The notes below the pieces were generated by a model that was given only the letters and a program-made list of their open reading frames with translations, had not been told where the DNA came from and made no database searches. Positions 10,875-14,938 of a DNA stretch of 53,663 nt are shown here, one piece after another (within the stretch, counting starts at the first letter, position 1; each line of letters begins with the position of its first letter). The translations under genes and the position numbers were made by a program. Source of the stretch: Ignavibacteriaceae bacterium (GTDB lineage: Bacteria; Bacteroidota; Ignavibacteria; Ignavibacteriales; Ignavibacteriaceae); assembly GCA_013360295.1 (NCBI GenBank), contig JABWCL010000031.1:1-53663 (forward strand). The letters are read 5' to 3'.

Positions 10875-12278
10875 ATGAAAAAGATATCCTTACTTACCTT
10901 ATTCGTACTGTTAAGTATGAATGCTTTCGCTCAGCAGCCCGAGTGGACGTTTATTAAGCAGATTGGTTTCCCCCAGATAGATACTGATTCAAACTGGGTG
11001 CAGCCCTACCTGACCACAATGGACTCACAGGGCAGATTGTACGTTGCCTCTTCAAAAGTCACAAGGGCATCCGCGCATAACGCGATTTATTATCTCGATC
11101 CGGGTGACACAGTTTTTAAGAAATGGATCGATTACGATCTGAACGGCGATTCGGATACCCTCACGGGCAATATCGCCGCGATAAGAGGTATCGGGTCTCT
11201 CGGCACCGATCTTTTTATTGACGCGAATATTCCGTTTCAGCGGGTTGCCAACACCCTCTCCTCCCTATACCGCTACTCACAGGGTGATACCAACCTGGTC
11301 GAAAAGTTCGGATTTAACATTAATGGCTCAGGATACGGAACATATATCCACGGAATAGCTCTTACGAAAGATACTATTATTATGACTGGTATCACTTTCA
11401 ATACGAGCATCCGTTTTTATAATTTCAACAGGGCTATCACGACCCCGGCCTATGGATCCTGGGTTTCTTTAACAACCTACCCGATGGAGCCGGGCGGACC
11501 GCATAATAATGGTTTTGACGTGATCAGAGATATCGCGACTGTTCCAAACGCTGATTATTTGCTGCCCGAAACACCTTTTTATACTAGCCGTAATTCCTTA
11601 TCCGCGGCACAGGTTACAGGAGGTATCGCGATATGGACAGGTGGTAGCCAGTTAAATCCCGGCGGATACACCGGAACCAGAATTGCAGATGCTTCAGGCG
11701 AACTCGCTCTCGGCACTTCGATTGCGTATGGCATCAATGTTGATAAGGACGGCTATCTCTGGGTCGCCGGTAACGATACCACCCGTAAGTGGGTAAAGGC
11801 ATACCAGGTACTTATCAATTTCGCCAATAATGTTTACAGCCTCCCTTCAGCGACCGATCCTGTGAATCCTGATCCAAATGGCGCGCCATTTGCAAATCCC
11901 AATGACGTTGTAATCAGCGCGGACGGAAATACGGCTTATGTAACCGATGCAGGAACGAAGACAGTTCACTTATTCCGCAATATTGTTGTAGGAATAAAGG
12001 ATAAGATCAGCGACTTCGATTTCGCGTTGAACCAGAACTACCCGAATCCTTTTAACCCTTCAACTGTTATTTCTTACAAACTTGCACAGGCTGGTGATGT
12101 AAGACTAATCGTTACCAACTCTCTCGGTGAAGTAGTTGAAACCCTTATCAGCGGATACAAAGAAGCGGGTTCTCACGCAGTTCAGTTTGACGGAAGCAAA
12201 CTTTCGAGCGGTGTATATAACTACACACTTATCACCGCTAACGGAGTAACTTCCCGAAAAATGATCCTGGTTAAATAA
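10875..12278 (+). CDS. T9SS-exported beta-propeller-like protein
   Basis: 467 residues with a signal peptide (MKKISLLTLFVLLSMNAFA, cleavage before QQPEW). The body has strand-rich repeats resembling NHL/SMP-type propeller blades: MDSQGRLYVASS, VDKDGYLWVAGN and ISADGNTAYVTDAG. The last 80 or so residues are a type A T9SS sorting domain: NQNYPNPFNPSTVISYKL, a middle LGEVVETL and the ending SSGVYNYTL...SRKMILVK. It is therefore predicted to cross the outer membrane by type IX secretion and be anchored or released at the surface. No catalytic motif is visible, so the function of the body is unknown. A strong terminator follows. Confidence 0.85.
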   Translation: MKKISLLTLFVLLSMNAFAQQPEWTFIKQIGFPQIDTDSNWVQPYLTTMDSQGRLYVASSKVTRASAHNAIYYLDPGDTVFKKWIDYDLNGDSDTLTGNIAAIRGIGSLGTDLFIDANIPFQRVANTLSSLYRYSQGDTNLVEKFGFNINGSGYGTYIHGIALTKDTIIMTGITFNTSIRFYNFNRAITTPAYGSWVSLTTYPMEPGGPHNNGFDVIRDIATVPNADYLLPETPFYTSRNSLSAAQVTGGIAIWTGGSQLNPGGYTGTRIADASGELALGTSIAYGINVDKDGYLWVAGNDTTRKWVKAYQVLINFANNVYSLPSATDPVNPDPNGAPFANPNDVVISADGNTAYVTDAGTKTVHLFRNIVVGIKDKISDFDFALNQNYPNPFNPSTVISYKLAQAGDVRLIVTNSLGEVVETLISGYKEAGSHAVQFDGSKLSSGVYNYTLITANGVTSRKMILVK

Positions 12279-12330: not shown

Positions 12331-12390
12331 CAGAAAATTTTGCAATATCTTCTAAAGTAGTTATTATGTTTAAATGTGGGAAATAAAAAA

Positions 12391-12472
12391 GCATCCTTTC
12401 CACAAATAAGAAATACTTATTAAGTTAGTGAAATTAATCAAAGAATCATTAACTAAAGTGGTAAAGGATGCC
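12391..12472 (+). ncRNA. Structured leader of the IS110 transposase (possible bridge RNA)
   Basis: An outer stem pairs GCATCCTTTCCAC (12391-12403) with GTGGTAAAGGATGC (12458-12471), allowing one bulged base. It spans the transposase ATG at 12468. Two inner hairpins fit inside: AATAAG/CTTATT (12405-12421), and AGTTAGTG (12423-12430) with CATTAACT (12447-12454). IS110 elements are known to encode a guide (bridge) RNA in a non-coding end. Here the fold could be that RNA, part of it, or a translational control hairpin. Confidence 0.4.
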
Positions 12473-13532
12473 AATGGAAAATACAAAAATAGATTTCACG
12501 GGACAAACCCTGTATATAGGGATAGACGTACACAAGACCCAGTGGTCGTTAGCAGTATACTGGTCGGGTGGCAAGTTAAAGAATACGGTAACAGGCAGTT
12601 CGCCGGAAGAGGTTAACAGTTTTTTAAGGCGCAATTACCCTGGTGCAGAATACCATAGTGTATACGAAGCAGGATTTAGTGGATTTAGCGCTCATCGGAG
12701 ATTGAACGAATTGGGGATAAAAAACATAGTGATCAACCCGGCAGACGTACCAACAAACCATAAGGAGCGTATAACTAAAAATGACCGAAACGATGCCAAT
12801 AAACTGGCAGTGAATCTTATGAAGGGGAATTTGAAGGCGATATATGTATTAGATCGTAGAGCTGAGGCAATAAGGACACTGTGCAGGGATAGGTATACTC
12901 TAACGGGAGATATTACGCGAGAGAAGAATCGGATAAAGACATTCTTGAATTTCAAGGGGATAAAGATGGCTGATGGTGATAAATGGAGTTGTAAATTCAT
13001 AGCCAGACTAAAGCAAATGTCGTTCGAATATAAGCAGGAGAAACAGGTATTAAGCAGACACATCGAAAAGCTTGAAGATTTGCTGAGGAAAAGACGGGAA
13101 GTTGAAAAAGAAATAGAAGAAGCAATTAAAGAAGGCGGAAATGAAGCGCTGCTCAATAGGCTACGTAAGAGTGTGCCGGGAATAGGGAAAATAACTGCAT
13201 ACTATCTTATGTGCGAGATAGTTGAAATGAAGAGATTCAAAAACATTGAAACCTTGTCAGCGTTTGTAGGTCTTATACCAATAATGAAGGAATCGGGAGA
13301 AAAAAAGAAAAAGTCCGGAATAACCGGCAGGAAAAATAAATACCTACGCTACTATTTAATCGAAGCAGCTTGGATAGCCGTTAGAAGAGATCCGGCGATG
13401 AGTGCATACTATATGAAGTTATGTAAAAGAATGAAAAAAACCAGAGCGATAGTTTCCGTAGCCAGAAAACTATTGAACAGAGTAAGGCATATCTGGTTAA
13501 AAGAAGAAGATTATCAAGAAGGAATAAAATAA
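12468..13532 (+). CDS. IS110-family transposase
   Basis: Serine/RuvC-like recombinase of 354 residues. The N-terminal DEDD domain shows GIDVHK (Asp20), VYEAG (Glu67) and NDRNDANK (Asp106 and Asp109). A coiled central region (about 185-230) precedes the Transposase_20 domain, with SVPGIGKITAYYL and then ESGEKKKKSGITGRKNKYLR. The Ser276/Ser283 region is the likely nucleophile site. The frame is full length with no stops, so the element could be active. Codon and base use is more A/T-rich than in neighbouring housekeeping genes, consistent with transfer. It sits between the cargo gene terminator and pyrH and does not interrupt a recognisable gene. Confidence 0.93.
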   Translation: MPMENTKIDFTGQTLYIGIDVHKTQWSLAVYWSGGKLKNTVTGSSPEEVNSFLRRNYPGAEYHSVYEAGFSGFSAHRRLNELGIKNIVINPADVPTNHKERITKNDRNDANKLAVNLMKGNLKAIYVLDRRAEAIRTLCRDRYTLTGDITREKNRIKTFLNFKGIKMADGDKWSCKFIARLKQMSFEYKQEKQVLSRHIEKLEDLLRKRREVEKEIEEAIKEGGNEALLNRLRKSVPGIGKITAYYLMCEIVEMKRFKNIETLSAFVGLIPIMKESGEKKKKSGITGRKNKYLRYYLIEAAWIAVRRDPAMSAYYMKLCKRMKKTRAIVSVARKLLNRVRHIWLKEEDYQEGIK

Positions 13533-13568
13533 AAATAATTACTTAGTAAACCTTAGGAATAGAATTTA

Positions 13569-13642
13569 GTGTAGACCACCCCGACTCGCACTGTCACTTG
13601 ATCAAGTGATTCTATTGTAGTTTGTGGCTGCACACCTTTTTT
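13569..13642 (+). terminator. Terminator-like structured element 3' of the transposase
   Basis: GTGTAG (13569-13574), one bulged A, and CCAC (13576-13579) pair with GTGG-CTGCAC (13624-13633), with one G-U pair. This encloses the 16-bp palindrome at 13594-13609. A run of six T follows at 13637-13642. It may end the transposase transcript or be the right-end RNA structure of the IS. Confidence 0.5.
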
Positions 13643-13761
13643 AAGTTAATAAATAAAATGTGGCATTAACTTGACCACTGATAACAGGATGCCGAAAGGT
13701 TATTGAGTAAGAAATTAAGAAAATAGTTGAAATAACTCTCCCTCAACAAATACACAGAGGA

Positions 13762-13789
13762 AGGTGGAATTGCTTTGTCAACTCCACCT
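13762..13789. repeat. Imperfect hairpin in the IS-pyrH gap
   Basis: AGGTGGA (13762-13768) pairs with TCCACCT (13783-13789). An inner TTG/CAA extends the stem past one mismatch. No T-run follows. It lies outside the tentative IS end. Confidence 0.5.
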
Positions 13790-14023
13790 CCATTGTGAAT
13801 AGATTTGTGGTTGGTTTGCAATAAGTTTGCGAAAAAATAAAAAAATATTCCGCCGCCTATTGACATTTAACATAACAGTGCGGGTCGTGACCTGCGCATC
13901 AATATTGTAGTCCCCCAAATACCTCTATAATTCTAAAACAGTAATTCAAATCGTGACTTTCGCGATAATACTGACATTTCCCATACTCCCTCGCCTCGCC
14001 TGCCCAAATGATTTACTGATTCG

Positions 14024-14149
14024 TTACGGATATGTCCGGGTCTCTATTCCGTTCACCAGCAGAACCGCAATAAGCCGTAAGCCATACTTTTCATAGAACA
14101 CGACTGATGCCCCCTGTTCACCGAAATTGTCATACTTATTTCTAAATTT
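14024..14149 (-). pseudogene. Protein-like fragment without a start
   Basis: A 41-codon open stretch on the minus strand reads KFRNKYDNFGEQGASVVFYE and continues KYGLRLIAVLLVNGIETRTYP before a stop. It has a protein-like composition, but there is no start codon and a stop lies directly upstream. It may be a gene remnant or part of a dispersed element; it could also be chance. I do not recognise a family. Confidence 0.25.
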
Positions 14150-14221
14150 TTAATTCCTAATTTTTTCACTAATTCGTAAATTGTAAGGTTAATTTTTCAA
14201 TATTCAGAATAAGAGAAACCG

Positions 14222-14938
14222 ATGGCAAAATTGAAGTATAAGAGAGTATTATTAAAACTCAGCGGCGAATCGCTAATGGGTCAAAAGGGCTTTGGGATAG
14301 ATCCCGATAAGCTCGACTTTTTTGCTTCGGAAGTCAAGCAGATACACGACGCAGGGGTTGAGGTCGGGATTGTGATCGGCGGAGGAAACATTTTCAGGGG
14401 GCTCAGCGCTTCAGCACAGGGGATTGACAGGGTTACAGGCGATCAGATGGGAATGCTCGCAACTATGATCAACTCACTCGCTCTCCAAAATGCGATTGAG
14501 CAGAAAGGGGTCTTCTCAAGGCTTATGAGTTCAATACACATGCAGGAGATCGCAGAACCCTACATTAGGCGTCGTGCGATCAGGCACCTCGAAAAAGGGC
14601 GCATTGTGATCTTCGGCGCGGGTACCGGGCACCCCTATTTCAGTACGGATACAGCTGCTTCCCTCAGGGCAGTCGAAATTCAGGCTGATGCTATCATGAA
14701 GGGTACAAGAGTTGACGGTGTGTTTGATTCTGACCCGGAAAAGAACCCTGACGCTCTTAAGTTTGAGAACATCACTTACATAGATATTCTGAAGAAAAAT
14801 CTCCGGGTTATGGACCTCACGGCGATAAGCCTCTGCCAGGAGAACAATCTCCCGATCATTGTTTTTAATATGGATCAGCCAGGGAATTTATTATCACTCG
14901 TTACCGGTGAGAACATCGGTACATTAGTCACGCATTAG
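14222..14938 (+). CDS. pyrH: UMP kinase
   Basis: Phosphorylates UMP to UDP in pyrimidine nucleotide synthesis. The 238 residues match the bacterial amino-acid-kinase-fold enzyme. Motifs seen are KLSGESLMG for phosphate binding, [12 protein letters not shown], the UMP/UTP-sensing [11 protein letters not shown], and [15 protein letters not shown]. The start [16 protein letters not shown] is standard. It is followed 19 bp later by frr, the conserved pair. In many bacteria the pair continues from rpsB-tsf; here those genes lie near 31 kb on the opposite strand. Confidence 0.97.

What the first reader, a model, noticed from the sequence alone, without database searches (positions are those of the whole stretch)
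12372..12472. Structured RNA at the IS110 transposase start, possible bridge RNA
A 13-bp outer stem (12391-12403 with 12458-12471) spans the transposase ATG and encloses two hairpins. One inner arm, CATTAACT (12447-12454), occurs again at 13664-13671 near the right end. IS110 bridge RNAs carry loops that match the element's own end sequences, so this identity is suggestive. It may instead be translational control or chance: an 8-bp match in A/T-rich DNA is weak evidence.
Basis: partly seen in the sequence, partly recalled or inferred. Interest (0 to 1): 0.6.

Follow-up and report, generated by a model that had tools for sequence, protein, structure and literature searches.

The report
Transposase leader stem hiding ribosome site
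The folded RNA at the start of this jumping gene is a real, conserved stem that hides the ribosome's landing site on the transposase message, so it most likely keeps the transposase scarce, while the element's guide RNA sits at its other end.

Summary
The fold is real: 13 bp with one bulge, z -5.14. Related elements keep the stem with other letters: on 19 leaders 9 of 14 pairs change on both sides, covariation 0.396 against 0.155 shuffled and at most 0.144 slid. It is not the bridge RNA. The element is IS1111-like: subterminal inverted repeats, and a second RNA downstream of tnp (13569 to about 13690) carrying both target guides. Its guides fit their own flanks better than swapped ones (0/2000 each); the left-end leader does not. 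The stem's 3' arm holds the Shine-Dalgarno sequence (12463-12468) of the probable start ATG 12474. Of 26 host genes, mean z is 0.13 against -5.29 for tnp. Best reading: a translation-blocking leader, as tested by others in the IS110-group element ISPpu9. Unexpected: in relatives an inverted copy of the stem's 5' arm recurs just inside the right end (0/5000 in two sets, 1/5000 in a curated third); the window's own copy is weak. There are no expression data, and what would lift the block is unknown.

The parts
12361..13878 (+). IS1111-like insertion sequence; ends placed to within about 4 bases
   Evidence: Subterminal repeats and guide-flank matches; no empty site was found
12350..12360 (+). 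left target flank TTCTAAAGTAG
   Evidence: 9 of 11 like the guide 13610-13620 (coordinates)
12364..12376 (+). left subterminal inverted repeat TTATGTTTAAATG, with -10-like TATGTT at 12365-12370
   Evidence: -10 role inferred
12391..12403 (+). 5' arm of the leader stem (anti-Shine-Dalgarno)
12405..12454 (+). two inner hairpins (12405-12421, 12423-12454), not conserved in relatives
12458..12471 (+). 3' arm of the leader stem, containing Shine-Dalgarno AAAGGA 12463-12468
12474..13532 (+). IS110-family transposase, probable start ATG 12474 (352 aa)
   Evidence: Pfam PF01548 and PF02371 on the 354-aa ORF; start from relatives
13569..13690 (+). right-end guide RNA (seekRNA/bridge RNA type), limits approximate
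   Evidence: fold z -2.40; guide-flank test
13582..13594 (+). guide for the right flank (pairs with the top strand of 13875-13887, 13 nt with one G.U)
   Evidence: (I16)
13610..13620 (+). guide for the left flank (TTCTATTGTAG)
13803..13810 (+). ATTTGTGG, complementary to 12400-12407: weak candidate for the right-end copy of the 5' arm
   Evidence: found by eye, position; the scored match of the window is near the swapped mean
13860..13878 (+). right end: TTGACA (13860-13865, -35-like) and right subterminal repeat CATTTAACATAA (13864-13875)
   Evidence: -35 role inferred
13875..13887 (+). right target flank ACAGTGCGGGTCG (overlaps the last bases of the element)

Best explanation
The fold is the 5' leader of the transposase mRNA of an IS1111-like insertion sequence. 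Its outer stem pairs a 5' arm (12391-12403) with the Shine-Dalgarno stretch just before the start codon (12458-12471), so ribosomes load poorly and little transposase is made, whether transcription enters from outside or starts at a junction promoter of the excised circle. SHOWN here: the stem, its covariation, its coincidence with the ribosome-binding stretch in elements from several phyla, and its absence as a rule upstream of host genes. INFERRED: that the leader is transcribed as one piece, that it lowers translation, and that something (an antisense RNA as in ISPpu9, the transposase, or right-end RNA) can open it. Target choice is made by a different RNA in the right end.
For: z -5.14. 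Covariation: 9 of 14 pairs change on both sides; score 0.396, shuffled 0.155 +/- 0.021, slid at most 0.144. In all 33 rows a GGA/GGAG-type Shine-Dalgarno motif lies within 14 nt before the ATG. In 30 leaders SD pairing averages 0.84 against 0.58 with the upstream part shuffled, mean z -3.63, 26 of 30 below -2 (my count). In 56 further leaders, stretch -15 to -5 paired 0.76 against 0.39 (n=39) and 0.74 against 0.53 (n=17); z below -2 in 31 of 39 and 14 of 17. Host genes: mean z 0.13, pairing 0.43 against 0.48 shuffled, 2 of 26 below -2. Precedent: in ISPpu9 mutations weakening the leader structure raised a reporter 26-fold (PMC8450116, passages).
Against: No expression or translation data. Taken singly, SD pairing beats its shuffles at the 5% level in only a minority of leaders, and only 13 of 30 have mean SD pairing above 0.9; the MFE of L014 does not mask the SD; L098, L128 and L129 have z near 0. 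The AUG itself is not paired more than in shuffles (0.46 against 0.49; 0.26 against 0.39). 'Further pair types' did not exceed shuffles (15 against 15.2). Promoter position is inferred; a start inside the stem would remove the 5' arm. Many leaders are near relatives, so counts are not independent.
Confidence: 0.8

Rival explanations
1. Bridge RNA: the left-end fold is the guide RNA that pairs with target and donor.
For: IS110-group elements carry the guide RNA in the left end (PMC11208160, passages). Window only: left flank CTAAAGTAGT is 9 of 10 like leader 12453-12462, and its longest exact match is 7 nt with the leader against 6 nt with the right-end RNA.
Against: As a group the leader does not fit its own flanks (1770, 1931, 827 and 69 of 2000 permutations; n=25, 25, 21, 21), whereas the right-end RNA does (0/2000 twice). 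Inner loops vary or vanish, e.g. a bare hairpin in L018. CATTAACT is at chance level.
Confidence: 0.04
2. DNA-level repeat: the 5' arm is the inner part of an extended terminal inverted repeat bound by the transposase, and pairing with the SD is a by-product.
For: The reverse complement of the 5' arm recurs in the last 110 nt of the right end: first set n=25, 6.84 against 5.21 swapped; second set n=17, 7.06 against 5.52 (0/5000 each); third set n=24, 7.08 against 5.50 (0/5000), curated n=13, 7.46 against 5.58 (1/5000). In L073 and L153 it lies 1-3 nt from the terminal repeat.
Against: It does not explain why the second strand of the stem is always the ribosome-binding stretch next to the ATG. 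The right-end copy is weak in the window (6.0). It can be true together with the leader reading.
Confidence: 0.08
3. The stem is chiefly an mRNA stability or processing element, or a mimic of the guide RNA bound by the transposase for feedback.
For: Long stem at the 5' end; transposases of this family bind RNA (PMC11187229, abstract and section 12).
Against: Neither predicts that the 3' arm should be the ribosome-binding stretch. Leader and right-end RNA are not alike in sense beyond swapped pairs (548/2000).
Confidence: 0.08

Closest known systems
ISPpu9 tnp leader of Pseudomonas putida (PMC8450116; abstract, outline and passages seen)
   Same: IS110-family transposase; leader structure thought to bury the ribosome-binding site; mutations weakening it raised a reporter 26-fold
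   Different: ISPpu9 has a long 5'-UTR (ATG at +245) opened by an antisense RNA, Asr9; here the leader is about 110 nt and no antisense RNA was looked for; this element is IS1111-like
IS1111-type seekRNA elements such as ISEc11 (PMC11187229; abstract, sections 6, 9, 12 and passages seen)
   Same: Subterminal inverted repeats, downstream guide RNA with the top-strand match 5' of the bottom-strand match, GL-P----SG motif
   Different: The passages I saw of that paper do not mention an SD-masking leader or an inverted copy of its arm in the right end
IS621 bridge RNA (PMC11208160; passages seen)
   Same: Same recombinase family and guide logic
   Different: There the guide RNA lies in the left end; here the left-end fold is not the guide
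Translation-limiting transposase leaders of IS10, IS50 and IS200 (recalled, not read here)
   Same: Structure at the transposase start limits translation
   Different: As I recall, in IS10 and IS50 it acts on transcripts from outside only; here transcripts from the inferred junction promoter would carry the stem too

Membership tests
IS1111 group of the IS110 family | DEDD and Transposase_20 domains | tested here: met
   PF01548 E 6.9e-16, PF02371 E 4.4e-23
IS1111 group of the IS110 family | subterminal inverted repeats of 7 or more bp | tested here: met
   TTATGTTTAAATG 12364 against CATTTAACATAA 13864, one-base gap; a left repeat in 48 and a right repeat in 46 of 54 elements by pattern search (my count)
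IS1111 group of the IS110 family | longer non-coding region downstream of tnp, holding the guide RNA | tested here: met
   about 346 nt downstream against about 113 nt upstream; flank test
IS1111 group of the IS110 family | guide order: top-strand match 5' of bottom-strand match | tested here: met
   13582-13594 before 13610-13620; same orientation across elements; order as in PMC11187229 section 9
IS1111 group of the IS110 family | GL-P----S(T)G motif; transposase 330-350 aa | tested here: met
   GLIPIMKESG in the window protein; 352 aa from ATG 12474, two above the stated range
IS1111 group of the IS110 family | placement in the IS1111 clade of a transposase tree; circle with active junction promoter | not tested
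   no tree with reference elements was built; circle needs an experiment
Bridge RNA (left end, IS110 group) | RNA loops that match the target flanks | tested here: not met
   leader against flanks 1770, 1931, 827, 69 of 2000
Bridge RNA (left end, IS110 group) | RNA loop that matches the donor ends | not tested
   only the CATTAACT match was examined, at chance level
SD-masking transposase leader (as in ISPpu9) | structure that covers the ribosome-binding site | tested here: met
   prediction with covariation:
SD-masking transposase leader (as in ISPpu9) | weakening the structure raises translation | not testable with these tools
   needs reporter fusions
SD-masking transposase leader (as in ISPpu9) | antisense RNA that opens the leader | not tested
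   no promoter scan of the opposite strand was made

The most novel reading that the evidence does not exclude
One element-specific sequence is used three times: as the 5' arm that masks the ribosome site, as its complement at the ribosome site, and as an inverted copy beside the right end. The right-end copy would free the ribosome site when the ends are joined in a circle or when a complete transcript with its guide RNA is present, so that the element couples transposase synthesis to an intact guide RNA or to the excised circle.
Probability: 0.12. Interest if true: 0.65.

Novelty: new variant of a known kind. Interest (0 to 1): 0.42.

Why it matters
IS110-family recombinases are being developed as RNA-guided tools for DNA rearrangement. 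A translation-blocking leader that is separate from the guide RNA in IS1111-like elements of several phyla warns against reading a left-end fold as a guide, and suggests removing or opening it when the recombinase is expressed. The recurring right-end copy of the leader arm is a concrete, testable lead on how these elements recognise their ends or time transposase synthesis.

Tried and rejected
Bridge RNA in the left end: rejected by the flank test and by the varying inner loops. CATTAACT as a guide-donor match: chance level. Known Rfam family: no match at gathering threshold in the window. Empty site: not found; in the sister genome G001 the two neighbouring genes match on different contigs, and I saw no recognisable target site upstream of pyrH in L040 (by eye). 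First genome-contig scan with the single protein: 11 pattern hits, no relative. Plasmids: 373 records, all under 60% identity, 40 listed; the one fetched (Gloeocapsa, a split transposase) showed no clear stem by eye; an L018 query found nothing there. Read-through switch: SD released by more than 0.3 in 4 of 40 elements. AUG masking as a general rule: not supported on average. A stem check on the right-end RNA gave 97 of 130 pairs in 26 of 31 elements, without a control and with register errors; I do not lean on it.

Rows dropped; 31 of 37 elements kept (L016, L017, L021, L026, L028, L029 out), of which 25 or 21 had enough flank. From then on: L016, L017, L021 (5'-truncated match) and L028 (second copy of L026) out, 33 left; 30 of 33 (L006, L010, L024 cut by the contig end); 19 of the 30 leaders, those with one stem type that align; alignment A1 misplaces the 3' arm of L005 and L030 by one base, which counts against the structure; first set 25 of 33, second set 17 of 21; the others lacked a located left or right end. 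I had read the second set by eye, and the statistic was narrowed to the last 110 nt after the first set; 56 of 80 loci (18 left out by me: contigs already held, an identical copy and one without leader; 2 flagged as duplicates; 4 without a usable start); the label 'Bacteroidia-type' is mine from titles and includes L111 and L114, titled Clostridiales; 24 elements, some with doubtful right ends (L152 probably a second inverted element); the 13 were picked for a plausible right repeat.

Full report
What was claimed and what is there. The stem exists as described (12391-12403 with 12458-12471, bulge 12462; MFE -27.4, shuffled -12.3, z -5.14). The gene has both IS110 Pfam domains and is single-copy in its genome. 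A named member of the same family, L139 (same contig positions as G112), is an Ignavibacteriota MAG.

Relatives. Transposase relatives were found in 22 of 97 genomes (E<=1e-30), 25 of 164 of the order (E<=1e-60), 10 of 395 drawn from the phylum and 29 of 391 drawn from the class (L003 as query); these tallies include the own genome. A second genome-contig scan with a protein alignment kept the best 80 of 214 relatives, titled Ignavibacteria, Calditrichota, Bacteroidales, KSB1, Deltaproteobacteria, PVC group and others.

Conserved stem. Nearly all leaders inspected have a stem in the same place with other letters, such as GGTATCC/GGATACC, GACATCC/GGATGTC and GAGTGTCC/GGACACTC. On 19 leaders, whose transposases are about 37-45% identical to the window's (one partial match 50%), 9 of 14 pairs change on both sides (shuffled 5.9, 6/500 reach 9), 83.3% of cells pair (shuffled 69.1, slid at most 47.4) and the covariation score is 0.396 (shuffled 0.155 +/- 0.021, slid at most 0.144). 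Shuffles do not remove relatedness; the slid controls keep it. Further pair types did not exceed shuffles (15 against 15.2).

The stem masks the ribosome-binding stretch. In all 33 rows an SD-like motif lies just before the ATG, which moves the window's likely start from 12468 to 12474. In 30 leaders the SD is paired 0.84 on average against 0.58 when only the upstream part is shuffled, mean z -3.63; by my reading of the structures 29 of 30 put the SD-to-ATG stretch into the stem (exception L014), but only 13 of 30 have SD pairing above 0.9 and many single leaders do not beat their shuffles at 5%. In 56 further leaders the stretch -15 to -5 is paired 0.76 (n=39) and 0.74 (n=17) against 0.39 and 0.53 in shuffles, while the AUG is not (0.46 against 0.49; 0.26 against 0.39); many of these are near relatives. 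In 26 host genes of the window the measures are ordinary (mean z 0.13; 0.43 against 0.48), while tnp has z -5.29 and 0.89.

The guide RNA is elsewhere. By pattern search a left repeat (TATGTTTAA type) was found in 48 and a right repeat (TTAACATA type) in 46 of 54 elements; a TTG lies beside the right one in 44 of 46, TTGAC in 18 (my counts). The window's right end holds CGACTCGCACTGT (13582-13594), which pairs with the right flank 13875-13887 over 13 nt with one G.U, and TTCTATTGTAG (13610-13620), 9 of 11 like the left flank 12350-12360. Across elements the right-end RNA matches its own left flank in sense (7.04 against 5.70 swapped, 0/2000, n=25) and its own right flank in antisense (7.60 against 5.67, 0/2000, n=25). 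The two other orientations are null (1382/2000, 540/2000), and the leader is null in three tests and marginal in one (1770, 1931, 827, 69 of 2000). Against this, in the window alone the longest exact left-flank match is 7 nt with the leader and 6 nt with the right-end RNA. The order, top-strand match first, is that reported for IS1111 seekRNAs (PMC11187229, section 9 read). Two identical copies in Sphingobacterium cellulitidis (L160, L161) share the element together with short flanks that the right-end guide fits by eye.

Unexpected: an arm copy at the right end. The reverse complement of the 5' arm is found in the last 110 nt before the right repeat more strongly in the same element than in others: n=25, 6.84 against 5.21; second set n=17, 7.06 against 5.52 (0/5000 each); third set n=24, 7.08 against 5.50 (0/5000), and 13 curated rows of it 7.46 against 5.58 (1/5000). 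Sense controls are null (2614, 4149, 2203 and 1091 of 5000), and the rest of the right end is not significant (673, 2785 and 577 of 5000). The SD arm itself also resembles the right end above swapped pairs, more weakly (15 and 42 of 5000). Strong cases are L073, L069, L018, L153, L034 and L007. The window scores 6.0, near the swapped mean; by eye its best exact match is ATTTGTGG 13803-13810 with 12400-12407. I think an extended DNA repeat is the likelier meaning: adding the own right end to the leader lowers SD pairing from 0.74 to 0.66 (swapped right ends 0.74; Wilcoxon p 9e-5), but releases it by more than 0.3 in only 4 of 40 elements.

How it probably works. Inferred from the above and from ISPpu9 (PMC8450116; abstract and passages): the leader keeps transposase synthesis low, so the inserted element stays quiet when neighbouring transcription runs in, and the circle's inferred junction promoter (TTGACA at the right end, TATGTT at the left; spacing about 17 if the ends are as I place them) gives limited protein unless something opens the stem. 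The opener is unknown.

What is known and what is new. Translation-blocking leaders and IS1111 guide RNAs are both known. In eight searches of the open-access library I saw no listing that points to a conserved SD-masking leader in IS1111-type elements or to a right-end copy of its arm. Most subscription papers are missing from that library and I read only abstracts, sections and passages of the three key papers, so this is not proof of novelty.

Noticed in passing
L160, L161 (Sphingobacterium cellulitidis): Two identical copies in one genome inserted beside the palindrome GGGCGTATCGCATACGCCC; useful for fixing ends and target.
   Followed up: partly
L018, L019, L020, L022, L023, L025: These Ignavibacteriota-order elements sit beside AACG (left) and, where the right end is held, often GCCGTTA-like (right) sequence that recalls integron attC sites, as in the IS1111-attC group (the resemblance to attC is recalled).
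   Followed up: no
window 14132-14197: A/T-rich stretch upstream of the AA_kinase gene (14222-14938, probably pyrH) with 30-66-nt matches at several other places in the same genome.
   Followed up: no
window 12032-12078: Sorting-tail coding sequence that matches many places in this genome and its sister; Por_Secre_tail domain.
   Followed up: no
window 12352-12361 and 12453-12462: Left flank CTAAAGTAGT and leader CTAAAGTGGT agree in 9 of 10 bases; not seen as a rule in relatives.
   Followed up: partly
L152: A second left-end-like sequence lies inverted downstream of the transposase, which may mean two facing elements.
   Followed up: no
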